Shown: one piece after another, positions 1 through 13,023 of the stretch
How positions within the stretch are numbered: position 1 is the stretch's first letter
How the letters are laid out: each line of letters starts with the position of its first letter
Assembly: GCA_019117605.1 (NCBI GenBank)
Contig: DWZK01000090.1
Coordinates: 1-54,905 of the forward strand
Direction: 5' to 3'
Source of the DNA: Candidatus Intestinimonas stercoravium
GTDB lineage: Bacteria > Bacillota > Clostridia > Oscillospirales > Oscillospiraceae
Length of the DNA: 54,905 nucleotides
The notes under the pieces: generated by a model
What the model was told of the DNA's origin: nothing
Database searches by the model: none
Seen by the model: only the letters and a program-made list of their open reading frames with translations
Program-made: the position numbers and the translations under genes

Positions 1-434
1 TGCCGCTTTGCGAGTATTTTTTGACTTCGATCAATGATTCTTACGGCATCAACAAGAAATTCTCTCCAGCCGCGCTGCTCCTGCTTGAGCGTCAGGAGTG
101 GAGAGGGAATTCCAGGGAGCTGCGAAATGTGGTAGAAAGGCTGGCGATCCTCTCTCCTACTGACGAAATATCAGAAGCATTTACCAGTAAAATCATACAA
201 GAGAGTATCTACATCCCTGCGGAGCTCCCTATCTCCGTCAGTCCCCCGCCCCAGATCATCAATTTCTATCGAGCCCTCTCCAAAGAATCAATTATCGCCG
301 CACTCAACCAATGCGGTGGAAATAAGCGCAAGGCGGCAGAAACTCTAAATGTCTCCCGCTCCTTTTTCTATAAAAAGCTCAGAGAATACGGCTTGATCGA
401 AAAGCATCCGCCCCGCACGTCCGAACAAGACTAA
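1..434 (+). CDS. sigma-54-dependent transcriptional regulator, C-terminal part (5' end outside window)
   Basis: Open frame continues upstream of the listed start (PLCEYFLTSINDSYGINKKFSPAALLLLERQEWRGNSRELRNVVERLAILSP). AAA+ sigma-54 activator C-lid motif (W-x-GN-x-REL-x-N-x-x-ER) followed by a Fis-type HTH (ALNQCGGNKRKAAETLNVSRSFFYKKLREYGL). Confidence 0.85.
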   Translation, partial: PLCEYFLTSINDSYGINKKFSPAALLLLERQEWRGNSRELRNVVERLAILSPTDEISEAFTSKIIQESIYIPAELPISVSPPPQIINFYRALSKESIIAALNQCGGNKRKAAETLNVSRSFFYKKLREYGLIEKHPPRTSEQD

Positions 435-915
435 CGCTTGAGTTTTTGAGGGGAATGTCATAAAACTGTTTTCCCAGTTTCAAGGCGGACAGGCTGTTGC
501 TCAGAGCCGGATCCGTGATCTTGCCGTTGAAGAAACGGTCGTTGGCCATATGCCCGATGACCACATCGCGGCCAGCGGCTATAGCGGCATACCGCTGATA
601 AATGCGAGAGCCTTTGGTAGCTCCCAGCTTCCCTCGGTCGAAGGCAATCAGCAGTGCCCATTCCAGGCCGACTTCCACATCGAGGATCTTGAGGCCGGTC
701 AAGTCGGCCTGCAAAGTGCAGTGTTTCCCCCGCTGGACAGTTGCGCGGCTGTATCCGCTCAAAAGCCTCTCTGCCAAAATCACATCGGTCCCGGCTGATG
801 GGAGCAGGTCTGCGCCGTGATAAAGATCGACGGTTTTATTGGTGGAATGATAGCGACCTTCGTACTCGATAAATGGCCGCTTATCATCTAAAATTTTAAT
901 CTTTCCGCGCCGCTT
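379..915 (-). pseudogene. probable remnant of a DUF3990-like protein
   Basis: Open minus frame reads ...EYEGRYHSTNKTVDLYHGADLLPSAGTDVILAERLLSGYSRATVQRGKHCTLQADLTGLKILDVEVGLEWALLIAFDRG...DVVIGHMANDRFFNGKITDPALSNSLSALKLGKQF. It resembles DUF3990-type proteins, has no convincing start/RBS, and its 3' end overlaps the sigma-54 regulator. Confidence 0.4.
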
Positions 916-945
916 ACAATAAGCGCGGCGCTACTCTCAAACATC

Positions 946-989
946 CGATGCCCGGACAAGCCTGCTCTCGCAAGGCTTTCCGGGCATCG
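946..989. repeat. long imperfect hairpin (17-bp stem, one bulge) between two diverged ~22-bp direct repeats
   Basis: CGATGCCCGGA-C-AAGCCT...AGGCTT-TCCGGGCATCG. Flanks CTTACAATAAGCGCGGCGCTAC (~913-934) and TTTACAATAGGCGTGTCGCTAT (~990-1011) match at 17/22 positions. Confidence 0.6.
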
Positions 990-1096
990 TTTACAATAGG
1001 CGTGTCGCTATGTATCCCGCATCGAGAAAAAGGCGCTCAAGAAGCTGAAGGACGCCATGGAGGGGCATTAGAGAGCAGGCGGTCCGCGCAGAAGAG

Positions 1097-1120
1097 GGCC
1101 CGCTCCGTGTGGAGCGGGCC
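1097..1120 (-). terminator. hairpin, candidate terminator for the DUF6339/GHKL operon
   Basis: GGCCCGCTCC-GTGT-GGAGCGGGCC, 10-bp perfect stem downstream of the 1237-1995 ORF; weak U-tract. Confidence 0.45.
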
Positions 1121-1236
1121 TTCCCGCGTGTACGGGCCTCCGTCCGGGTCTGCTTCCTCCGCGCCGGCCGCGCCTCGGGGCGCAGCAGAGCCTCTCGCCC
1201 CGTCCTCTGCCGGACGCCCTGTCCCGCCCCTTTCCA

Positions 1237-1995
1237 TCATCCGGCGGCCTTCTCCAGGTACCGGTCCAGGCGTCTGTCCACGATCTCGCGCACCTCTTCC
1301 CGCCCGATGGTGTCGAGGAGCATCGTCCCGCCCAGGCTGTTCAAATATCGGTTCGCTTCCACATAGTGATATCTGCCGATCCTCTCCCCCCGCGCTCTCC
1401 TGGCCGCCATGCAGTCCAGGACGCCCAGAGCGATCTCCCTGTTCGCCATGAAGTTGCTTGAGGAGAGCAGGATGACCGTGGACGCATATGCGCCGTCACA
1501 GAGCAGATCTGCCGCGTGGAAGTGGTCCGCCGCCGCCCCGTCATAGATCAGATGTCCCGTCCACCAGAGCCTGGACAGGCAATTCATGAAGCAGGAGCGC
1601 TTTGTCCCCCGCATAAAGAAGAACGAATTTTTGATGTCCTGTTCGCTGCCGCCGTCCAGCTCTCGTCCCCTTCTGTATCTCACATAGTCCCAAAACGGCC
1701 CGAACAGCGCTCCGGCCCAGAGGCGCTCGTCCGCGGCAAGGGCGGGGGACAGGCCGCGCAGGCCGGTATAGACCCGTTCGATGTTGCGCCGGTCGGAGGT
1801 GTTGAAGTCCTCGCTCATGTCCAGGTCGATCGCATCATATCGGACTTTTGAGTTCCTCCACCAGCCGTTCTCCTCGAACACTGCGATGAACCAGCTGGGG
1901 GTGGGGTCTGAAAAATGCGCCCTGTACTTGAAGAAGTTCATCTTGATATCGTCGATGGCCTCTTGAGCAAGATACGGCAGGACCATCACTCGCAC
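1237..1995 (-). CDS. DUF6339-like protein
   Basis: 252 aa; segment YDAIDLDMSEDFNTSDRRNIERVYTGLRGLSPALAADERLWAGALFGPFWDYVRYRR resembles the DUF6339 family. Start overlaps the stop of the upstream ORF. Confidence 0.7.
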   Translation of the reverse strand: MRVMVLPYLAQEAIDDIKMNFFKYRAHFSDPTPSWFIAVFEENGWWRNSKVRYDAIDLDMSEDFNTSDRRNIERVYTGLRGLSPALAADERLWAGALFGPFWDYVRYRRGRELDGGSEQDIKNSFFFMRGTKRSCFMNCLSRLWWTGHLIYDGAAADHFHAADLLCDGAYASTVILLSSSNFMANREIALGVLDCMAARRARGERIGRYHYVEANRYLNSLGGTMLLDTIGREEVREIVDRRLDRYLEKAAG

Positions 1996-2852
1996 ATCCC
2001 TTCGCTGTAAGAATCCAGTTCCCTCAGGCTGCGTGATATGGGGTCTGCGAAGATAGACTGGCAGACCGAGAGGAGCGCGTCGCTTTGGATGTCCAGCGTC
2101 TCCACCGGCTGGCGGCCCTCCTCCAGGATGGACTCGATCACCTGATACCAGTGCATGGACGTATAGCTCTCATCGTCCCGCATCAGGTACATCCTTTGGA
2201 GCACGATCACCAGCGCGGGGAGCAGGACCAGAGAGAAGGCGGTGGCCCTGAACGTGCTCTTGCCCAGGCGCGCATACAGCTCGAATACATCTTCCGAGAG
2301 CCCGATCGTTATGTGCTCCCCACTGTCGGTGTCCACGCTCATCGTCCCCTTCTTTTTGTCCTTCAGAGGGATGATGCGCAGGATGGAGGGCAGCGAGCCG
2401 ATATCTCTATCGTCCTTTTTCACTGTATAATCTTTTGCGCTCCCGATGGCGATGATCTGATGGCGGCGGAAATCGAACGACTGTCCCCGGCGGTCGGGAT
2501 GGAAGGCCCCTGAAGTGAAGCCGGCGACCTCCCTGTCCATGACGATGAACGTCCGAACTTCTATCTTGTTCGCGACCTGGTCGGCGGGGAACCTGAACCC
2601 CAGCACATCTTCGCTCGTCGAGATCGCCGTCCGGTAGCATGTGACCGGACACTCTATATGGACCACGAATCTCGCCGCCTTTGCATCTATCAGCGCGCGT
2701 ATGTCGGCATCGTCCAGATGGAAGCGGACCTCCCCATACACTTCGGAGAAGCGAGCCTCCACTTCTATCTCGGCGGAGAACGACGAGCCGATGTAGTCGT
2801 CCCCATAGTCGTTCAAGATCGGATAGGGTGAGAGCCTATTTTTTACTCGCAA
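1986..2852 (-). CDS. hypothetical protein (288 aa), part of the GHKL operon
   Basis: Full-length ORF overlapping both neighbours (17 bp with the GHKL gene, 10 bp with the DUF6339 gene). No family recognised. Confidence 0.8.
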   Translation of the reverse strand: MRVKNRLSPYPILNDYGDDYIGSSFSAEIEVEARFSEVYGEVRFHLDDADIRALIDAKAARFVVHIECPVTCYRTAISTSEDVLGFRFPADQVANKIEVRTFIVMDREVAGFTSGAFHPDRRGQSFDFRRHQIIAIGSAKDYTVKKDDRDIGSLPSILRIIPLKDKKKGTMSVDTDSGEHITIGLSEDVFELYARLGKSTFRATAFSLVLLPALVIVLQRMYLMRDDESYTSMHWYQVIESILEEGRQPVETLDIQSDALLSVCQSIFADPISRSLRELDSYSEGMCE

Positions 2853-4710
2853 AATAATCCACCTCCATCATGCAGTAGTAGCCGTCAAGATCCACCTGGA
2901 ACCCCAGCCGCAGCGGCGCTCCCTTCGTGAGGTCCTGGAGATAGACCGTGTTCCCCGCCGTTTTGACGATCTTCGCCCGGCTCCCGCCCCCCTGGAGCTG
3001 TACGGCCCGGACCGGCAGGTCCAGTTCGCTCTGCTCCCCTGAAAGGGCGAACACCATTTTCCCGTATTTGGCAGAGGACGGTGAGATGAGGTCCAACACA
3101 TACATGCCCTTCGACACATCTCTGCATGTGAGTCGTTTTTTCACGTCGATCTTTTTGTACCCGGTGCGTCCGCCCTCTCTGTCGCCCCCCGGCAGAGAGG
3201 AGGACGCCCGTGGGGACCCGCCCCGCCCCCGCGCGCCTCCCGCCTCTTGGGGCGGGCCGCCCGCTATCAGGCCGAGCTGCCTTGCCCGCTTTCTGCTCGG
3301 CGCCACTTCCTTCCCCACCAGCTCCTTTATCCCTGCGGACAGCTCGCTCTTCTCGAGGCCCCTCTGCCCCGGCGCATCGATCCGGTCAGGCAGGAAATCG
3401 CTCGCGCCGAAAGCGTCTATCGAGGCGCTGTTCGCCTTGCCGAAGTTGCGGAGCACCTGCTCTTTGAGATACTTCTTAAGGTCCCGGAGCGCGCCTGCGC
3501 AGACCTCACGGTCCTCGCGGCAGCGCCCGGGCTCCCAGGCATCGTGTGACGGGACCTCCATCTTCTTGAACGTCTCGTTCATCTTTTCTCCGTCGATAAT
3601 CAGCACCCCGTAGAATTCGATGCTCCCGCTGATGCGGTCCTGCTCCAATATGCGCATCCCCGCGCTCCTGGTGATCAGGATCTTCCTCCCAAAGCCCTCC
3701 CCCTCCTTGAGGTACAGGGTGCACTCTCCATCTGAAAAGCCGTATCTCTGGCCGTAGACACGGCTGTCCAACGGGATGCGCAGGATATCCGGGTCCGGCG
3801 ATGTGAGGATGTGGTGATAGATCAGCAGCGCCTTTATGTCCTCGCTCTCGTGCGGATCCAGCCGCGCCATGTACTGCGCCAGCGTCCCTCTGTCGATCTG
3901 TTCATCCTGGATGAGGACTTCCAGTTTCCCCTTGACCACAGAGACCATGAAATCCAGCAGGACGGCCCTGATGAATGCCGTCTTGAAGTCCCCATCCATG
4001 TGCATGCCCAGGATGTAGATGTCCGTCCCGGACGCCTTTCGCCGGTATCCCTCGTGGAGCGCGGCCAATTCCCGCATCGCCACGTATCTCTCATCTTCAG
4101 AGTAATATCCCACGCCGGTCGTCCACCCCAGATCGGGGTCCTGGAAGGAGATGAGCTTTGCCACACCGATGTTGGAGGGCAGCCCCTGGACATCCAGAGA
4201 AGAGTAGAACACGGTGCGAAGGTCGGAACATGCGAAGGCCGCCGACTTGCCGATCCCGAAACTGCCGCCGGAATCTTTCCCCTTGTTGGAAGAGCCGCTC
4301 TCTTTGACCAGGCGGCTCCAGCCCGTGCCCTTTGCACAGGTATCGCTGCCCTCCAGCCCTACGGTGCCCTGGTCGCTGATCCGCAATACGGCTATGCTGC
4401 TCCCGTCCAGCGTCCCGGCGGCACGCACGAAGAAGCGATAGGCGTCCGGCTCTTCCCGGTTGCTGTCGCGGCACATAGCCACAGCGGCTCTGAGCCGCCC
4501 CACGTCCGGGATCTCCTCCACCGGCAGCTGGAACAGCGAGAACTCTACCCGTGTGGCGCCCGCGTATCCGGGGATCGCCGCATCCAAAGCGTTCTGGATG
4601 GTCTCACGAACGAGCGAGCGGGTCAGATCCGCGGTAAAAGTCTCTATCCCCGCGTCATTGATGCCAGAGAACATGGAATTTTGGTTCGCGATGAAGCGCC
4701 ACTGTCTCAT
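2836..4710 (-). CDS. GHKL/Hsp90-like ATP-binding protein
   Basis: 624 aa with ordered GHKL motifs: RSLVRETIQNALDA (N box), LRISDQGTVGL (DxG box), GGSFGIGKSAAFA (GxGxG box). Distinct C-terminal domain (KIVKTAGNTVYLQDLTKGAPLRLGFQVDLDGYYCMMEVDYF). Confidence 0.85.
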   Translation of the reverse strand: MRQWRFIANQNSMFSGINDAGIETFTADLTRSLVRETIQNALDAAIPGYAGATRVEFSLFQLPVEEIPDVGRLRAAVAMCRDSNREEPDAYRFFVRAAGTLDGSSIAVLRISDQGTVGLEGSDTCAKGTGWSRLVKESGSSNKGKDSGGSFGIGKSAAFACSDLRTVFYSSLDVQGLPSNIGVAKLISFQDPDLGWTTGVGYYSEDERYVAMRELAALHEGYRRKASGTDIYILGMHMDGDFKTAFIRAVLLDFMVSVVKGKLEVLIQDEQIDRGTLAQYMARLDPHESEDIKALLIYHHILTSPDPDILRIPLDSRVYGQRYGFSDGECTLYLKEGEGFGRKILITRSAGMRILEQDRISGSIEFYGVLIIDGEKMNETFKKMEVPSHDAWEPGRCREDREVCAGALRDLKKYLKEQVLRNFGKANSASIDAFGASDFLPDRIDAPGQRGLEKSELSAGIKELVGKEVAPSRKRARQLGLIAGGPPQEAGGARGRGGSPRASSSLPGGDREGGRTGYKKIDVKKRLTCRDVSKGMYVLDLISPSSAKYGKMVFALSGEQSELDLPVRAVQLQGGGSRAKIVKTAGNTVYLQDLTKGAPLRLGFQVDLDGYYCMMEVDYFASKK

Positions 4711-4727
4711 CCGCCGTCCATCCCTTC

Positions 4728-4952
4728 CTACAGTTCGAACTTCTGCGACTTCGTCCGAGAGCGGAATTTTTGCTTGGTCTCTCTCACTTCCGCCTCGATC
4801 GCAGAAAAGATCTTCTTGATATCTTCGTCCGTATATGCGTAGTTGGAGCGGTTGGAGCAGTTCCCCAGCAGCCGCAGTGCTTCGATGATCCGGTTGGTCC
4901 GGCTCTCTGCGATGCGTTTGAACCTTTCAGCCTTCGTCTCTTCAGTAGCCAC
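4728..4952 (-). CDS. small conserved-looking protein (74 aa), first gene of the GHKL operon
   Basis: GTG start with AAAGGAGG 7 nt upstream. Sequence ETKAERFKRIAESRTNRIIEALRLLGNCSNRSNYAYTDEDIKKIFSAIEAEVRETKQKF. Confidence 0.75.
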   Translation of the reverse strand: MATEETKAERFKRIAESRTNRIIEALRLLGNCSNRSNYAYTDEDIKKIFSAIEAEVRETKQKFRSRTKSQKFEL

Positions 4953-4973
4953 AGTTTTTCCTCCTTTTTCTAT

Positions 4974-5002
4974 ATGATATCTCTATATATATGATATGTC
5001 AA
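4974..5002 (-). promoter_or_regulatory. sigmaA-type promoter of the GHKL operon
   Basis: On the minus strand: TTGACA (5002-4997), 17-bp spacer, TATCAT (4979-4974), followed by AAAGGAGG and the GTG start at 4952. Confidence 0.65.
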
Positions 5003-5022
5003 CAATATACGTCAAATATTGT
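5002..5022. promoter_or_regulatory. inverted repeat upstream of the -35, candidate operator
   Basis: ACAATAT-acgtcaa-ATATTGT, 7-bp perfect arms with a 7-bp spacer abutting the -35. Confidence 0.4.
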
Positions 5023-5150
5023 GTATATATTTTCTGTATCACATCGTATCCTCTATAGATCTCATCCTCTGTGTTATATGGCAGATATCGTCTCCAGCGC
5101 GATCGGCGAGACGCCGTTCCCCTCCGCCCGCCGGACCGGCCGGGATGAGA

Positions 5151-5188
5151 AAAGGCCGGGAAACACCTGTGATGTGTTTCCCGGCCTT
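5151..5188 (-). terminator. rho-independent-like terminator downstream of the YibE/F gene
   Basis: AAGGCCGGGAAACAC-ctgtgat-GTGTTTCCCGGCCTT, 15-bp perfect stem; TTTTCTC follows on the minus strand. Confidence 0.75.
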
Positions 5189-5313
5189 CGGGGCATATAG
5201 GGGATCTCTGCGCCCCGGTCCCGCCTTGCGCAGGGCATATCCGACCAGTTCGGATCTTCACCCTTCCTGTCACGATCTTGCGTGCCCACGCCCATCCGGG
5301 GGGCATGACCTCT

Positions 5314-6489
5314 TCATTTAAGGAGCTTGGCACTGAGCAGAGCCACCATAGGCACAGTGAGGATGATGCCCACGGATCCGGCCACGCTCTGGATGAGCTC
5401 TATGGCCATAGTGTCGCTGTTGATGATCTGGATCATGGGGTAACCGTAGACCTGGAAGAGCACCAGCATGTTCAGCGACGCGCCGGCGAAGGCCAGGATC
5501 AGGGTATTGGCCATGGTGCCCATGGCGTCCCGGCCGATATTCATCCCCGAGCGGAACACCCGCCCGGGCTGGATGGAGGGCTCCACCTCCCGGAGCTCGT
5601 TGCAGGCGGAGGCAATGGACATGGCTACATCCATCACCGCCCCCAGAGAGGCGATGAGGATGCCGCTGACCAGCAGGCCCCGGATCTGGAGCGGGGAGTC
5701 GTAGGCCCGGAGGACCAGGTCCTCCGCCTCCGACATATTGAAGCCGCTGATGGGTGTGATCTGCCCCACCGCCCAGGCAAAGAGCCCCGCCACGGCCACG
5801 CCGCACACGCAGCCCAAGGCCGCCACCAGGGTCTTGCGGGTGAAGCCCGTGAGCATCAACAGCGAGGCCGCCGCCGTGAGGGCGGCGATGGCCACGGACG
5901 TGGGGATCGGCGGCGCGCCCCGCAGCAGGAGCGGGATGAGGAGGAACCAGATCCCCGCCAGGGTATACGCCAGGCCCAGCAGGGCCATGATCCCCTTCTT
6001 CCCGCCGACGAGGACCAGGATCAGGCAGAACACCACCAGCATCCCGATGAGCACCGAGCCCCGGTCATAGTTGGGCACGGAGATGATGTAGGGCTCCCCC
6101 TGGTCGTCGTAGTCCAGCCGGACGATCACCCGGGTGCCCAGCTCGCAGTCCACATTGGCGTAGGCGCTGAGGTAGTTGATGGTCTCCAGCACCGCCCCTC
6201 TGTGGGGCCCGCTTAGGATCTCCACCTCGATCTCCTGGCTGCCGAGGCGCAGCCCCCCGCTCCACGGCTCCGGCTGGGCGTCATCTGCCAGGATATCAGT
6301 CACTTTCGCCACAGCGAAGGACCTCTTCTGGGCCGCGGTGCGCTCCCCGTCCTCCTGCCGGAGGAACAGGCCGCCCAGGACCAGGAGCAGGAGCAGGGCC
6401 GCCCCCACGATGATGCCCGCCCACCGCCGGCCATCCATGGGCGGCCGGTGCGGCTGGGGCGTTGGTGGCTTCTTTTCCGCTGAACGCAT
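5314..6489 (-). CDS. YibE/F-like membrane protein
   Basis: 391 aa; N-terminal OB-like extracellular part and multiple TM helices with the YibE/F-type core (SLGAVMDVAMSIASACNEL...GMNIGRDAMGTMANTLILAFAGASL). Confidence 0.85.
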   Translation of the reverse strand: MRSAEKKPPTPQPHRPPMDGRRWAGIIVGAALLLLLVLGGLFLRQEDGERTAAQKRSFAVAKVTDILADDAQPEPWSGGLRLGSQEIEVEILSGPHRGAVLETINYLSAYANVDCELGTRVIVRLDYDDQGEPYIISVPNYDRGSVLIGMLVVFCLILVLVGGKKGIMALLGLAYTLAGIWFLLIPLLLRGAPPIPTSVAIAALTAAASLLMLTGFTRKTLVAALGCVCGVAVAGLFAWAVGQITPISGFNMSEAEDLVLRAYDSPLQIRGLLVSGILIASLGAVMDVAMSIASACNELREVEPSIQPGRVFRSGMNIGRDAMGTMANTLILAFAGASLNMLVLFQVYGYPMIQIINSDTMAIELIQSVAGSVGIILTVPMVALLSAKLLK

Positions 6490-6524
6490 ATCCGTCCTCT
6501 TCCTCTCTCAGGTGCATCCAAGAC

Positions 6525-6556
6525 GGGAGCCGTCCGCCCGAAGGCGGACGGCTCCC
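6525..6556 (-). terminator. terminator hairpin of the SLH/PHP protein gene
   Basis: GGGAGCCGTCCGCC-cgaa-GGCGGACGGCTCCC, 14-bp perfect stem just after the stop at 6595. Confidence 0.6.
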
Positions 6557-6594
6557 CTTGTTCATCTCGTGTATACTGATCTCTCAGGCTCCGC

Positions 6595-9500
6595 TCAGCC
6601 TTCCAGAGCCAGATAGCGGCTCAGGATGGTGGCCAGCTCCGCACGGCTGCTCTGGCCGGCGGGGGCCAGCAGGCCGCCGTCCCGGCCCTGGATCAGGCCG
6701 GCTCCCACGGCCCAGGACATGGCATCCCGGGCATAGGCGCTCACCTGGCCCTCGTCAGGATAGGCATCCAGTGCGCTGCCGCCGGCGGTGCTGCCGCCCA
6801 TATGGGACTGGTAGCGGTAGAGCATGGCCGCCAGCTGCTCCCGGGTCACGGGGTCATTGGGGGCGAAGATGCCGGTGTCATAGCCGGTGACCACGCCCGC
6901 CTGGCTGGCCCAGCCCACCGCCTGGGCGTACCAGCTGCCGCTCTCCACGTCGGGGAAGGCGGAGCCGCCGGTATAAGTCTCGCCGGACATGCGGTAGAGC
7001 ACCGTGGCCACCATGGCCCGGCTCACCGTCATATCGGGGGCGAAGAGCCCGCCGGACACGCCCTGCATCAGGCCGTTGGCGACGACATTCTGGACTGCGC
7101 CGGCGTACCATGCGCCCGCGGGCACATCTGTGAACACGGTGGGAGCCAGAGGCGTCTCACCCTCGCCGATCTCAGTGCCGCCGCCCTGGCCGGAAGAGCC
7201 GCTCTGCCCCGGCGCGGTCACCACGGTGGAGCTGTTCTCCGGGTCGTGGTCCTCATCGGTCTCCGGGGGCTCGGGCGTGGGCTCGTCGGGCTCCTCAGGC
7301 GCTTCGGTGCATACGATGTCCGCCCGGTCCCGGATGCGGATGCGGGGCGCAGGGCCGTCGAAGGTATCGTCATAGGAGGCCAGACCGGTGGCGGTGATGG
7401 CGCAGCCTACCTCCAGCCCCTCCACGTCCTGATCGGTGGTGATGTAGCCGTCGATGAACACCCGGCCCACATCGCCGTTCTCGTCCCTGACCATGATGGT
7501 CTGGACCAGGCCGTTCTCCTCCTGGAAGGAGGTCACGGTGCCCTCCAGCGTTACCAGACTGCCCAGGACAGAGCCGTCGTTGAGCTGGGCCGCAGTGATG
7601 GCCTTGGGGGCGGGAGCGGCGCCCTCGCCGACCTTCTCGATGCTGTCCACGGCGATCTGCCGCTCGCCCTGGTAGGAGGAGGTGGTGCCGGTGATCCGAA
7701 CGATGTCGCCGATCTTGAAGTCTCCCGCCACAGGGAAGGCGTTGACGCCGGCGGTGTCGTCCTGGACGTAGATGCAGTCGAAGAAGGCGGTGTCTCTGTC
7801 ATAGCCGGAGGCGTTGGAGGTGACCACGCCCTCGATGGTGTAGCGGACGCCCTCTTCCGGCTCCGCCTGCACGTCGGCGATGTGGCTGACGGTGACAGGA
7901 TTGAGGTATTCCACCAGGTTCTCGCAGATATCATAGTTGGAGTAGTTCTTTTCCGCTCCGGAGTCCTCTACCGTGGCCTGGACCTCGAAGTTGGACATGA
8001 AGGCAGCGCCGGCGACGATGATGAGGCCCTGATCCTCCACCTGCTCGGTGGCCAGGACCATCAGGCGGTCGTCCCCTTCGGACACGGGATATTCAGGGAT
8101 ATCTCCGCCCAGGCCGTCGTGGTCGTTGTCGCTGGAGTAGGTGGAGTCGTGGCCGTAGACCACCGGCGTGACTGTCGCGGGCAAGACGCTGGTGGGCGTA
8201 CCGCTCTCATCCACCGCATAGACGGTAGAACCGCCGTAGTTGCTGTAGAGCTGGGAGTACATGTTGTTGTCGGGGTTCTCAGGGTCGAACTCCACGCCGT
8301 CCATCAAGAAGCTGTCGAAGTTATAGGTGGACAGGTAGAGCCTGCGGTTGGAGTCCCCGCCGTTGCGCTCGTCATCAGAAGCCGTGTCATCGCCCAGGCG
8401 CAGCGAGGAGCCCAGCGCCTCCAGGAGCTGGTTCTGGGTGGCGGCCATGTGCAGGATGGTGGGGTCATCCTGGATGACGCTGTAGTTCTCATAGACGTCG
8501 CCCCAGCCGGACACCACGACCGTGCCGCCGGCAGCGTTGAAGGCCGCCAGGGCGTCCAGCTCCTCCTGGGAGTAGGTCCGCGGGTCGCTCTGGGCCTCCG
8601 CCAGCCGCCGGGAGGGAGCGGTGAGGATGATGGCCTTATACTTCCCGTCCGCATTCTCGCAGGCGGCGATCAGATCGCCGCTGGTCTCCAGCTCCACGGT
8701 GCGCACCAGATGACCGGCCGCCAGGTTGCCGAAGTTGCCCATGGAGTCCTTATAGTTGCCGTTGACATACTCGTTATAGTGGGAGGCGTCGATGCCGATA
8801 TACACCAGCTTCTCCGCGTCCAGCACGTCCAGGGTCACGTCCATGCTGTAGGTGTACTGGGTCCCGCCCTGGGTCATCGCCACTGTGACGGTGATGGTGG
8901 TGAGCCGGGCCTGGGTCGGGGTGTAAGTCCACTCCACTGCCAGCGTGCCGCCGGAGGCGTCCACGGTGTAGCCGGTGGTGTCGGTATACAGGGTCTCGCC
9001 TCCGCTGGTGTAGGTGATGGAGTCCACCGCGGCCGCTTCCGTCTCGCTGTTGAAGAGGTTGGTGGTGATGGTCACCGGCTCATCCGTGACGGGATTCTCG
9101 GTGCCGCACTCCACGGAGGAGATGCCCAGCTTCAGGGTCTCGCCCACCCAGACGGGAGCGGTGACGGCCAGGTCGCCGTCGCCCTGGGTGACCCGGATGA
9201 AGTAGTAGCTGTAGTCGGCGGGGATGGTGCAGGTGAGCTCGCCGGAGGCCAGCTCCTCCGGGTCGTCCCAGGTGTGGGCCACCGCGCCGGAGTTCACCAC
9301 CACCTCCACGCGGGTGATGGAGTCGGCGGCGTCGGGGTCGTAGACCGAGACGGCGATCTCCGCGGCCTCTACGCTGTCGTCATCAATGATGGAACCCAGC
9401 ATCTGACCGTTGAGGCTGTACTGGATCTCCAGGTTCTTGTCCTCGGTGGCGTAGATGCGGCGGTCCCGGATGGCCTGATAGATGCCCTCCTCGGAGAAAT

Positions 9501-12500
9501 CGTCGGTAAGGATGACGTCACGGGCGTCGTTGGCGTTGCCCCACTTGCCCTTGTGGTTGTCCTGGTTGTTGGTGGGGCCCACATGCCAGCCCTTGTCCAG
9601 AGCCATGATGTACTGCTCATAGCTGGGATAGTAGCCGCCCGCGCCGATGGCGCCCTCGCCGTTGCCCACTTCCACCAGCTGGATGCGGGTGTCGATGACG
9701 GGGTCCCAGTAGGCGAAGTCGACGAAGTTGCCGAAGGTGGTGCCGGGGTGGTTGAACTGGTTGATGGAGTTCACGCCCTCGGCCTGGCTGAGCAGGGAGT
9801 AATAGGCCTTCAGCCCGGCGTCCGACGTCTTGCTGTTGAGGGTGTCGTTGTTGCGGGAGACCAGGCCCTCGGTGTTGAAGGTGTTGATGTGGCCGGGGCC
9901 GCCGGACCAGGTCATCTCGAAGCCGGCCAGGGCCACCAGTTCCCCGGCGTGCTCGTCGTTGAAGCCGGCCACCGCGCCCTTGTACTCCTCCCAGGTGGCC
10001 AGGCTCTCCCCGGTCATCTGGCTCTTGTCATAGAGGGCCTGCTCCGGGTTGGAGGAGCTGGTGCTGTCAAAGTAGTTGGAGTGGTCGGTGAAGGCCACGA
10101 AGTCCACGTTTGCGCTCTCGGGCAGTCCGGCCACATAGTCCAGGGCGGACTCCAGGGAGCCGGAGCCGTCAGAGTAGGTGGTGTGAGAGTGGAGCTGCCC
10201 GAAGTAGAGCTGATAGGCCGCCTCGCCCACAGTGAAGCTCCAGGTGCGGGAGGCGCTCTTGCCGCCCGTCCGGGTGACGGTGACGGCGGCGGTATAGCGG
10301 CCGTCTGCCAGATCGGCGGCGGGGGTATAGGAGGCGGTGTTCCCCTCGATGGTCATATCCGCCCCGTCCGCCACCGTCACGCCGCTGCCGGTCAGGGTCA
10401 GCTTGGCTGCGGGGGACTCTCCCGCGTTGGCAAAGGTGACCGAGATCACGGGCCGCTTATCCTCGCCGGTCTCTGCCCCGGCGTCGGGGGACACGGCGGT
10501 GATCACAGGCTCGTCCTTCACGGTGAGGATGGCCGTGCCGAGGAAGGCCGCTCCCTTGCTGTCCGTGCCGGAGACCGCCAACTCCAGGGTCCCCTCCGTC
10601 AGGGCGGAGCCGGGGATGGTAAAGGACCAGACCCCGTTCTCCAGCACAGGCTGGACCGTGGTCCCGCCGTACTGGGCGGAGACGGTCTGGACGCCGAACA
10701 CCGCGTCCACGGTAAAGGTGACGGTGTAGTCGGTCCCCACGAAGGCGTCGGTGAGGACGCCGAAGGTCACGGTGGGCACGTTGACCACACCCTCGGTGAC
10801 GTTCACGCCCTCCGCCAGGGGGCAGAACAGGAAGGTGTAGATATCATAGTCGGTGACATTGTACATGCTGTAGGTCTTGAAAGACCCGCCGTAGTACTCC
10901 AGGTACTGGGAATAGCGGCCGTTGAACTTTGCGGTGCGGCTCTCCAGGCTGTAGCCGGAGCCCAGCACGGCCAGGGTCCAGTCGGCGTCCTCGGAGGCCT
11001 CCTGGCTGTAGAAGGCGTTGTTGCCGGTGCCGTTGGAGCACAGGTATCCGTAGCTCTCGTTATGGAAGCGGTAGTACTCCCCATTGTGCTCCACGGTGAA
11101 CACCGCCGCGCCGTTGCCGGGGACAGCCGCGCCGTCTGCAAGCTCGGTGGGAGCGTTCTCAATGGAGGGGCTCTCCGCATTGTCGTCCTGGCCCGCCAGC
11201 ACGCCCTGGGCGGACAGGTTGTAGAGCACGACCTGGTCCCCCTCCTCGGGGAGGTCCCCGCCGGGCTCCGGGATGTCGCCGGTGACCTTGTAGAAGGCCA
11301 GGGCGAACATGTCCTCGCTGCCTGCGCTGATATTATAGTACGCGCTCCAGTTGTCTTTGGAGTCATACCACTCCATGTAGGCATCCCGGACGGTATTGCG
11401 GACGTACCACAGGCCGTCCTCCGCCTCTACCAGCTCCCACTTGTCGTTCTTCTCGTCAAGCGGCATACTGGTGAATTCGTCCCCCATGCTGATCTTCTGC
11501 CCGTCATAGGAGAACGACCAGGTCCCGTCACCGTTGTCGGTGACCGTCCACACATCGGAGGCGCTGTACCCGCTCAGGGTGCCGTCGCTGCCTACGGTCA
11601 CGTCGGTGCCGTTGTTGTAGTGGCCGGTATAGGTGGCCGACAGGGCCTTCCCGTAGGCCGGGTTATAGATGACCACTTCCTCCCCGTCCGCGATGGGGGC
11701 GTCCGGGTCGGAGGGGCCGGGGTCCTCTCCCTCTGCCTTGTAGAAAGCCAGGGCGAACATGTCCTCGCTGCCCGCGCTGATATTATAGTACGCGCTCCAG
11801 TTGTCTTTGGAGTCATACCACTCCATGTAGGCATCCCGGACGGTATTGCGGACATACCACAGGCCGTCCTCCGCCTCCACCAGCTCCCACTTGTCGTTTT
11901 TCCCGTCAAGCGGCATACTGGTGTGGCTGTCCCCCATGCCGATCTTCTGCCCATCATAGGAGAACGACCAGGTCCCGTCACCGTTGTCGATGACCGTCCA
12001 CACGTCAGAGGCGCTGTACCCGGTCAGGGTGCCGTCGCTGCCTACGGTCACATCGGTGCCGTTGTTGTAGTAGCCGTTATAGGTGGCCGACAGGGCCTTC
12101 CCGTAGGCGGGGTTATAGATGACCACTTCCTCCCCGTCTGCGATGGGGGCGTCCGGGTCGGAGGGGCCGGGCTCTTCCGTGCCGCCGCCCTCTAGCTTGT
12201 AGAGGGTGAAGTCGCAGGGGTAGCCGCCAGGCTGGCCGGCGATCGTACTGTCTTTATACGCACGGAATTTGTTCTCGGAGCTCTTATTGCTGGCCAGGGT
12301 CACCGTGTCCTCTCCCACGCCGTGGAACTGGAACGTCCCGTCGGCGAAGGTCACGTCCCAGACGTAGTCCCCCTTCGAAATGCCGTTCGCATTGCCGCCC
12401 TTGGGGGCCACCGTGACGCCGTTGGCGTCGGTGAGCACGGCGGTCTCGCCGTCCACCGTGATATCCCACACGATGCCGGAGGCGGGATCGGTGAGGGTAT

Positions 12501-12732
12501 CCGCGCTGGTATCCACCTCCGCGGCGGGGAGCCAGGTGCCGCTCAGCGCCTCCACCGCATAGTCGTCCACCGTCATCACATACTTGCCAGTGGTGAATTC
12601 CGCCTGTTCTGTGATCTTCTCAAAAGTTCCCGTGCCCTCCGCGGCAAAAGCCCCGGCAGGCAGGGCGCTGAAAGCCATGGAAATGGACATCAGCGCCGCC
12701 AGCGCTTTTCGTTGCCATCGTGTTTTCGTCAT
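6595..12732 (-). CDS. secreted multidomain S-layer homology protein with CehA/McbA-like PHP metallohydrolase domain
   Basis: 2045 aa: signal peptide (RKALAALMSISMAFSALPAGAFAAE); duplicated ~145-aa module; PHP motifs (GQLHSHTTYSDGSGS, FVAFTDHSNY, INQFNHPG, NNQDNHKGKWG); OB-fold-like region (VRYTIEGVVTSNASGY...FFDCIYVQDDTAGVNAF); three C-terminal SLH repeats. Confidence 0.85.
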   Translation of the reverse strand: MTKTRWQRKALAALMSISMAFSALPAGAFAAEGTGTFEKITEQAEFTTGKYVMTVDDYAVEALSGTWLPAAEVDTSADTLTDPASGIVWDITVDGETAVLTDANGVTVAPKGGNANGISKGDYVWDVTFADGTFQFHGVGEDTVTLASNKSSENKFRAYKDSTIAGQPGGYPCDFTLYKLEGGGTEEPGPSDPDAPIADGEEVVIYNPAYGKALSATYNGYYNNGTDVTVGSDGTLTGYSASDVWTVIDNGDGTWSFSYDGQKIGMGDSHTSMPLDGKNDKWELVEAEDGLWYVRNTVRDAYMEWYDSKDNWSAYYNISAGSEDMFALAFYKAEGEDPGPSDPDAPIADGEEVVIYNPAYGKALSATYTGHYNNGTDVTVGSDGTLSGYSASDVWTVTDNGDGTWSFSYDGQKISMGDEFTSMPLDEKNDKWELVEAEDGLWYVRNTVRDAYMEWYDSKDNWSAYYNISAGSEDMFALAFYKVTGDIPEPGGDLPEEGDQVVLYNLSAQGVLAGQDDNAESPSIENAPTELADGAAVPGNGAAVFTVEHNGEYYRFHNESYGYLCSNGTGNNAFYSQEASEDADWTLAVLGSGYSLESRTAKFNGRYSQYLEYYGGSFKTYSMYNVTDYDIYTFLFCPLAEGVNVTEGVVNVPTVTFGVLTDAFVGTDYTVTFTVDAVFGVQTVSAQYGGTTVQPVLENGVWSFTIPGSALTEGTLELAVSGTDSKGAAFLGTAILTVKDEPVITAVSPDAGAETGEDKRPVISVTFANAGESPAAKLTLTGSGVTVADGADMTIEGNTASYTPAADLADGRYTAAVTVTRTGGKSASRTWSFTVGEAAYQLYFGQLHSHTTYSDGSGSLESALDYVAGLPESANVDFVAFTDHSNYFDSTSSSNPEQALYDKSQMTGESLATWEEYKGAVAGFNDEHAGELVALAGFEMTWSGGPGHINTFNTEGLVSRNNDTLNSKTSDAGLKAYYSLLSQAEGVNSINQFNHPGTTFGNFVDFAYWDPVIDTRIQLVEVGNGEGAIGAGGYYPSYEQYIMALDKGWHVGPTNNQDNHKGKWGNANDARDVILTDDFSEEGIYQAIRDRRIYATEDKNLEIQYSLNGQMLGSIIDDDSVEAAEIAVSVYDPDAADSITRVEVVVNSGAVAHTWDDPEELASGELTCTIPADYSYYFIRVTQGDGDLAVTAPVWVGETLKLGISSVECGTENPVTDEPVTITTNLFNSETEAAAVDSITYTSGGETLYTDTTGYTVDASGGTLAVEWTYTPTQARLTTITVTVAMTQGGTQYTYSMDVTLDVLDAEKLVYIGIDASHYNEYVNGNYKDSMGNFGNLAAGHLVRTVELETSGDLIAACENADGKYKAIILTAPSRRLAEAQSDPRTYSQEELDALAAFNAAGGTVVVSGWGDVYENYSVIQDDPTILHMAATQNQLLEALGSSLRLGDDTASDDERNGGDSNRRLYLSTYNFDSFLMDGVEFDPENPDNNMYSQLYSNYGGSTVYAVDESGTPTSVLPATVTPVVYGHDSTYSSDNDHDGLGGDIPEYPVSEGDDRLMVLATEQVEDQGLIIVAGAAFMSNFEVQATVEDSGAEKNYSNYDICENLVEYLNPVTVSHIADVQAEPEEGVRYTIEGVVTSNASGYDRDTAFFDCIYVQDDTAGVNAFPVAGDFKIGDIVRITGTTSSYQGERQIAVDSIEKVGEGAAPAPKAITAAQLNDGSVLGSLVTLEGTVTSFQEENGLVQTIMVRDENGDVGRVFIDGYITTDQDVEGLEVGCAITATGLASYDDTFDGPAPRIRIRDRADIVCTEAPEEPDEPTPEPPETDEDHDPENSSTVVTAPGQSGSSGQGGGTEIGEGETPLAPTVFTDVPAGAWYAGAVQNVVANGLMQGVSGGLFAPDMTVSRAMVATVLYRMSGETYTGGSAFPDVESGSWYAQAVGWASQAGVVTGYDTGIFAPNDPVTREQLAAMLYRYQSHMGGSTAGGSALDAYPDEGQVSAYARDAMSWAVGAGLIQGRDGGLLAPAGQSSRAELATILSRYLALEG
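11288..12176. repeat. tandem duplication of ~440 bp inside the SLH/PHP gene
   Basis: Units start at ~11288 and ~11738 (offset 450 bp). Both encode DAPIADGEEVVIYNPAYGKALSATY...YNISAGSEDMFALAFYK, nearly identical at DNA and protein level. Confidence 0.9.
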
Positions 12733-13023
12733 TTAAAGACCATCCTTCCTCACAGACGATAGCCGCGGCTCTCTCACGAGCCGGGCCGTTTTCCTCTCGC
12801 AGGGGCACACATCCCCTCCTTTTGTCATAAAGATACGTGCGGACCTAAATTTATTGTAGCGAATTTTCGGGTCACATGCAACCTGGGCTCTGCGGTTTAT
12901 CTAATGCTTCTTGTAACGTGAATGTAAAATTCAGATGAAATGCCGGATAGATATGTGATCGTTCCAGGATGGCCAGGGGGCGCCGCCCTTTCCCTCCGAC
13001 AGATCCGAACGAGAGATGTGAAA

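What the first reader, a model, noticed from the sequence alone, without database searches (positions are those of the whole stretch)
1237..5022. Compact four-gene GHKL-ATPase / DUF6339 operon: candidate undescribed (defence-like) system
Seen: four minus-strand ORFs (74 aa, 624 aa GHKL ATPase, 288 aa orphan, 252 aa DUF6339-like). The last three overlap by 17 and 10 bp, and the set has its own promoter and terminal hairpin in accessory DNA next to mobile-element-like debris. Known: bacterial MutL/Hsp90-like (MORC-type) GHKL ATPases occur in mobile restriction-modification-like operons, but no methylase, Z1 helicase or nuclease is evident here. Inference: a self-contained ATP-driven module, possibly antiphage, with a novel effector in the 288-aa or DUF6339 protein.
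Basis: partly seen in the sequence, partly recalled or inferred. Interest (0 to 1): 0.82.

Follow-up and report, generated by a model that had tools for sequence, protein, structure and literature searches.

The report
Catalogued MutL-like ATPase antiviral candidate operon
The four genes are a real operon that matches PDC-M33, an already listed but untested candidate bacterial antiviral system built around a MutL-like ATPase, and in this genome its likely restriction-modification partners sit on another contig rather than beside it.

Summary
In detail: four co-directional minus-strand ORFs (74, 624, 288, 252 aa), tightly packed and under purifying selection. But it is not undescribed. The three large proteins match the PADLOC-DB v2 candidate system PDC-M33 A/B/C (E=5e-164, 4e-79, 2e-100). 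The 624-aa ATPase carries the ExxxH motif that defines the paraMORC2 family (invariant in 89/89 homologues). The 252-aa protein is DUF6339.

In 94 loci A-B-C order is conserved. The 74-aa gene, absent from the catalogue, is a real fourth member (38/94 loci, mostly just upstream of A); it also precedes other GHKL-like genes. Module loci carry a C5-cytosine methyltransferase nearby far more often than Gabija loci (23/49 vs 1/20). The closest relatives sit beside a C5-MTase/Sau3AI-MutH/Vsr cassette. This genome's only such cassette lies on another contig, which explains why no methylase or nuclease is seen here.

DUF6339 models confidently (pLDDT 95.5) with no PDB match; the 288-aa protein is an Ig-like beta-sandwich plus helices. 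No nuclease motif was found in either.

Best reading: a MutL-like ATP-driven clamp with two adaptors, working with C5-methyl restriction-modification, here unlinked. Anti-phage activity is untested.

The parts
4728..4952 (-). D: 74-aa small protein, first gene of the operon; conserved fourth component not in PADLOC or Pfam
   Evidence: (27 aligned homologues; 8 invariant columns)
2836..4710 (-). A: 624-aa GHKL ATPase, paraMORC2 family = PDC-M33A; GHKL motifs R35-E36..N40, D113..G118, G149-K155, G228-D230; ExxxH at E385/H389
1986..2852 (-). B: 288-aa protein = PDC-M33B; N-terminal Ig/FN3-like beta-sandwich plus helical C-terminal half; TTG start
1237..1995 (-). C: 252-aa (probably 249-aa, ATG at 1986) DUF6339 protein = PDC-M33C; mostly helical, no PDB counterpart
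4974..5002 (-). sigma-70-like promoter TTGACA-17-TATCAT (11/12), presumptive
1080..1140 (-). stem-loop downstream of the last gene, possible operon end; no T-run

Best explanation
The operon is a D-A-B-C copy of the candidate defence system PDC-M33. Inferred mechanism: A, a MutL-like paraMORC2 ATPase, dimerises on ATP and closes as a clamp on DNA. B (beta-sandwich plus helices) and C (DUF6339, helical) are non-enzymatic adaptors that recognise the invader or recruit nucleases. D is a small regulatory or assembly partner of the ATPase. The cutting and the self/non-self mark come from a C5-cytosine methyltransferase / Sau3AI-MutH-like endonuclease / Vsr cassette, as MutL works with MutH and Vsr. 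In the closest relatives that cassette is next door; here it is on another contig and would act in trans. Shown: family identity, gene order, motifs, selection, R-M linkage across the family, and presence of the cassette elsewhere in this genome. Inferred: clamp action, adaptor roles, trans cooperation and the anti-phage outcome.
For: PDC-M33A/B/C full-length matches and DUF6339. paraMORC2 ExxxH motif invariant in 89/89, with all GHKL motifs intact. A-B-C order conserved, A/B overlap median -17 bp. C5-MTase within 8 genes in 40/94 loci, Vsr 14, Sau3AI/MutH 14, type IV PLD-helicase 15, McrB-like 11, McrC 6. Specificity comparison: C5-MTase within about 9.5 kb in 23/49 module loci versus 1/20 Gabija loci, Fisher p=7e-4. 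16 of 45 MTase genes are same-strand and under 250 bp from the module; in L082, L093 and L100 the MTase lies between D and A. The closest relatives (53-62% identity; L019-L022, Sau3AI also in L023) adjoin Sau3AI, Vsr and C5-MTase. Own genome: the only C5-MTase (72% identical to the L020 MTase), only MutH-family gene and only Vsr lie together on C70, about 4 kb from a groEL typical of the genus. Both parts are rare in the order: PDC-M33A 5/396, MutH 7/357. VcSduA, annotated as paraMORC3-like, is a tested anti-phage ATPase-nuclease (PMC12137116).
Against: No direct evidence of function. R-M partners vary across the family (type I, AlwI, Sau3AI, McrBC, Mza-like helicase), and 10 of 55 fully flanked loci have none of the R-M families counted, so the module may work alone. 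Neighbour association may reflect shared islands, and related loci are not independent. In this genome the cassette is on another contig of an incomplete assembly (82% complete, 139 contigs). Adaptor roles for B and C rest on absence of motifs.
Confidence: 0.5

Rival explanations
1. Autonomous system: D-A-B-C alone senses phage (for example a DNA structure or a phage protein) and, through an uncharacterised activity of DUF6339 or B, blocks infection or kills the cell; R-M neighbours only share the island.
For: A-B-C is the constant unit while R-M partners vary; 10/55 fully flanked loci lack the R-M families counted; modules sit on plasmids and viral contigs, some next to other systems such as AbiG and Shedu; DUF6339 is a confident fold with no PDB match.
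Against: C5-MTase linkage is much stronger than for the autonomous system Gabija (23/49 vs 1/20); MTase genes lie between D and A in three loci; no recognisable effector motif in B, C or D.
Confidence: 0.32
2. Maintenance role: the module helps a C5-MTase R-M system repair or tolerate damage (deaminated 5-methylcytosine, self-cleavage), like very short patch repair, rather than attacking phage.
For: MutL-like ATPase with Vsr in 14 and C5-MTase in 40 of 94 loci; Iyer et al. noted possible recruitment of MORC relatives into mismatch repair.
Against: Many module loci have no C5-MTase; partners include type IV restriction and McrBC, which need no such repair.
Confidence: 0.12
3. Stray or decaying copy: the operon was separated from its R-M cassette and is on the way out in this genome.
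For: No R-M gene within 1.2 kb downstream or between the operon and yibE/F; nearby gene fragments.
Against: All four ORFs are intact, with ATPase motifs and purifying selection; the matching cassette is present elsewhere in the genome.
Confidence: 0.06

Closest known systems
PDC-M33 (PADLOC-DB v2 candidate system, genes A, B, C)
   Same: All three proteins match full length; same order and strand
   Different: The 74-aa upstream gene (D) is not part of the catalogued system; no publication mentioning PDC-M33 was found in the library
paraMORC2 GHKL ATPases (Iyer, Abhiman and Aravind 2008, PMC2292703)
   Same: GHKL motifs, ExxxH motif, Gram-positive bias, R-M neighbourhoods
   Different: The passages read do not describe B, DUF6339 or D as constant partners; no adjacent R-M gene in this window
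VcSduA / paraMORC3 (type I-D Shedu, PMC12137116)
   Same: MORC-like GHKL ATPase in a tested anti-phage protein; ATPase mutant abolishes defence
   Different: VcSduA has a fused PD-(D/E)xK nuclease; A has no nuclease match
Mza system (MutL-like, Z1 and AIPR proteins; from own knowledge)
   Same: MutL-like ATPase in a multi-gene defence operon; a MzaC-like helicase lies near the module in 6 loci
   Different: A has no match to Mza models; no Z1 helicase or AIPR in the operon
MutL-MutH / Vsr mismatch repair
   Same: GHKL ATPase associated with MutH-family and Vsr nucleases
   Different: No MutL family match to A; the MutH relative is a Sau3AI-type restriction enzyme with a C5-MTase; no MutS-like partner seen

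Membership tests
PDC-M33 (PADLOC-DB) | Full-length matches to A, B and C models in adjacent co-directional genes | tested here: met
   4.7e-164, 3.8e-79, 1.7e-100; order
PDC-M33 (PADLOC-DB) | Demonstrated anti-phage activity | not testable with these tools
   no paper found mentioning PDC-M33 or DUF6339
paraMORC2 | N-terminal GHKL domain with all ATP-binding motifs | tested here: met
   E36, N40, D113, G118, G149-K155, G228-D230 at 0.98-1.00 across 89 sequences
[quoted passage not shown]
   E385 and H389 at 1.00; definition from PMC2292703
paraMORC2 | S5-fold domain after the GHKL domain | not tested
   protein A was not modelled; no PDB sequence match
paraMORC2 | R-M gene neighbourhood | tested here: met
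   family level: 40/94 loci with C5-MTase, 23/49 vs 1/20 Gabija; not adjacent in this window
DUF6339 (PF19866) | Score above gathering threshold | tested here: met
   148.5 bits vs 23.2, E=2.2e-43
Linked R-M system | Methyltransferase and nuclease genes beside the module | tested here: not met
   none near the operon in the window; cassette on contig C70 instead
paraMORC3 / Shedu | Fused PD-(D/E)xK (DUF4263) nuclease domain | tested here: not met
   no DUF4263 or Shedu model match to A
Mza | Matches to Mza components in the operon | tested here: not met
   no Mza model among hits of the four proteins
MutL | Match to MutL family models | tested here: not met
   no Pfam match to A at E<=1 and no MutL model in NCBIfam

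The most novel reading that the evidence does not exclude
The 74-aa protein is a shared small partner of several otherwise unrelated defence-associated GHKL ATPases (paraMORC2 here; a 621-aa family beside Gabija; probable 793-aa and 800-aa families), and DUF6339 is a new helical fold acting as sensor or effector, so D-GHKL pairs define a general ATPase-switch class that can act with unlinked restriction-modification genes.
Probability: 0.25. Interest if true: 0.65.

Novelty: new member of a known kind. Interest (0 to 1): 0.42.

Why it matters
PDC-M33 is listed but, as far as the searched library shows, uncharacterised; paraMORC2 has been a prediction since 2008. The comparison gives concrete, testable additions: a missing fourth gene, a link to C5-methyl R-M well above that of Gabija, a confident model of DUF6339 with no known fold match, and a genome where module and matching R-M cassette are on separate contigs, which lets one ask whether the ATPase works alone or in trans. 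Bacterial MORC relatives also bear on how eukaryotic MORC proteins arose.

Tried and rejected
Single-sequence scan of genome contigs with DUF6339 found nothing; the alignment-based scan with A worked. DUF6339 has no match in the phage collection. Sequence searches of the PDB with A, B, C and D gave only E>=0.08 hits, treated as noise. Foldseek hits for C in the PDB and viral libraries (E>=0.4, including TAL effectors and a RabGAP) were rejected as noise; hits for B (E about 1e-3, cytokine-receptor and FN3 domains, query TM about 0.2-0.25) were read only as an Ig-like sandwich. Weak hits of D (Csa5, DegQ, CNNM) were rejected. The 80-aa protein upstream of A in L. salivarius is not D. The idea that D is exclusive to PDC-M33 was rejected: D occurs without A-B-C in plasmids, conjugative elements and cyanophages. 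A profile comparison with A did not detect the 621-aa and 800-aa proteins, so they are not shown to be paraMORC2; only the 621-aa one has a weak sub-threshold HATPase match, and the 793-aa and 800-aa ones rest on motif reading. Contamination as the source of the C70 cassette was judged unlikely from the neighbouring groEL. No Rfam match in window 1-13000.
Full report
Observation. The four minus-strand ORFs are present at the stated coordinates, with the 17-bp A/B overlap. The 10-bp B/C overlap depends on the GTG start; the family start aligns to residue 4, giving a TGATG junction and a 249-aa protein. All four ORFs show the codon-position pattern of purifying selection against relatives at 52-68% amino-acid identity. 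The promoter-like site matches 11 of 12 consensus bases, but one site is what chance gives at the scan's looser threshold; the downstream hairpin is strong but has no T-run. The operon lies in a variable slot: alignment with three same-genus genomes ends at the yibE/F stop codon. The window is one whole contig (C80), and the operon is 1.2 kb from its end.

Identity. PADLOC-DB v2 identifies A, B and C as PDC-M33A, B and C over their full length; Pfam identifies C as DUF6339. Neither PDC-M33 nor DUF6339 occurs in the searched literature. A carries all GHKL motifs and an invariant E385-x3-H389, the feature by which Iyer et al. define paraMORC2, a family they place in Gram-positive bacteria and cyanobacteria and in R-M neighbourhoods (PMC2292703). 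The S5 domain itself was not tested.

Conservation. In 396 genomes of the order, DUF6339 occurs in 4 and all 4 have A; one further genome has a weak partial A match. In 94 loci with A (80 genome loci, 6 viral contigs, the rest plasmids and genomes of the order), B is found in 92 and C in 87 with the same order; most missing cases are short or truncated contigs. A/B overlap median is -17 bp and B/C -4 bp. D is found in 38 of 94 loci, mostly directly upstream of A, and also upstream of A-B-C in Deinococcus, Arthrobacter and Planococcus plasmids. PADLOC, Pfam and NCBIfam have no credible model for D.

Neighbourhood. Clustering neighbours within 8 genes gave C5-cytosine methyltransferase in 40 of 94 loci, type IV PLD-helicase in 15, Sau3AI/MutH in 14, Vsr in 14, McrB-like in 11, HsdM in 7, McrC in 6. 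As a specificity control I took 20 Gabija loci of the same phylum: C5-MTase within about 9.5 kb in 1 of 20, against 23 of 49 module loci (Fisher p=7e-4). The loci are related to different degrees and the two sets were drawn differently, so the p-value is indicative. In three loci the MTase lies between D and A. Partners vary, and 10 of 55 fully flanked loci have none of the R-M families counted.

The missing partner. The closest relatives (L019-L022) carry Vsr, a Sau3AI/MutH-like enzyme and a C5-MTase next to the module. In this genome there is exactly one C5-MTase, one Vsr and one MutH-family gene, all on contig C70 at about 34.7-38.1 kb; the MTase is 72% identical to that beside the Oribacterium module. 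The MTase has no close relative in the ten other genomes of the genus searched, and groEL about 4 kb away is 81-94% identical to copies in the genus, arguing against contamination. Module and cassette are at least about 19 kb apart, and linkage through unassembled sequence is not excluded.

Structures. C was modelled at pLDDT 95.5 and is mostly helical; no PDB or viral-library match is better than E=0.4. B was modelled at pLDDT 91.3: an Ig/FN3-like sandwich plus helices, by topology only. Conserved residues of B and C do not form a nuclease signature I recognise, and distant members lose several of them.

D elsewhere. D occurs without A-B-C: upstream of a 621-aa protein with GHKL-like motifs and a sub-threshold HATPase match, followed by Gabija genes; upstream of a 793-aa protein after a C5-MTase and of an 800-aa protein, both GHKL only by motif reading; and in conjugative elements and cyanophages with no GHKL seen. 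So D is a wider family with a recurrent, unproven, GHKL link.

Mechanism. Established knowledge: GHKL ATPases dimerise on ATP, and MutL activates MutH and cooperates with Vsr. Iyer et al. proposed that MORCs and paraMORCs loop DNA between recognition and cleavage sites. VcSduA, annotated as paraMORC3-like, needs both its ATPase and nuclease residues for defence (PMC12137116). Applying this here is inference. I put 0.5 on the R-M-assisted clamp model, 0.32 on an autonomous system, and small weights on a repair role and a decaying copy. Assignment to PDC-M33 and paraMORC2 is far firmer (about 0.95).

Novelty. A new member of a catalogued but uncharacterised kind, with three additions: gene D, the C5-MTase specificity, and the unlinked R-M cassette.

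Noticed in passing
window 379-783 (-): Fragment resembling DUF3990 (E=1.5e-4, below the curated cut-off), probably a broken gene, between the operon and the contig end.
   Followed up: partly
window 1-434 (+): 3' end of a sigma-54-type activator gene (AAA lid plus Fis-type HTH) cut by the contig end; no counterpart near yibE/F in three sister genomes.
   Followed up: partly
L137:10581-10815: About 230-bp dispersed repeat beside groEL with roughly 30 copies in this genome (most 87-98% identical) and many in sister genomes; ends in a strong inverted repeat; absent from the window.
   Followed up: partly
L082:13444-16368 and 14 other loci: About 800-1100-aa protein with a zinc-ribbon-like start and a Sigma70 region 4 match, usually directly downstream of C; 14 of 15 such loci also have D. 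No PADLOC match.
   Followed up: partly
L122:6016-11288, L125, L124, L130: The 74-aa family precedes other GHKL-like genes, in L122 followed by Gabija GajA/GajB.
   Followed up: partly
L128, L129 (Synechococcus phages): Divergent copies of the 74-aa family in cyanophage genomes, with no GHKL gene seen nearby.
   Followed up: no
window 6595-12732 (-): 2045-aa protein with three S-layer homology domains and OB-fold/Ig-like matches, next to yibE/F.
   Followed up: no
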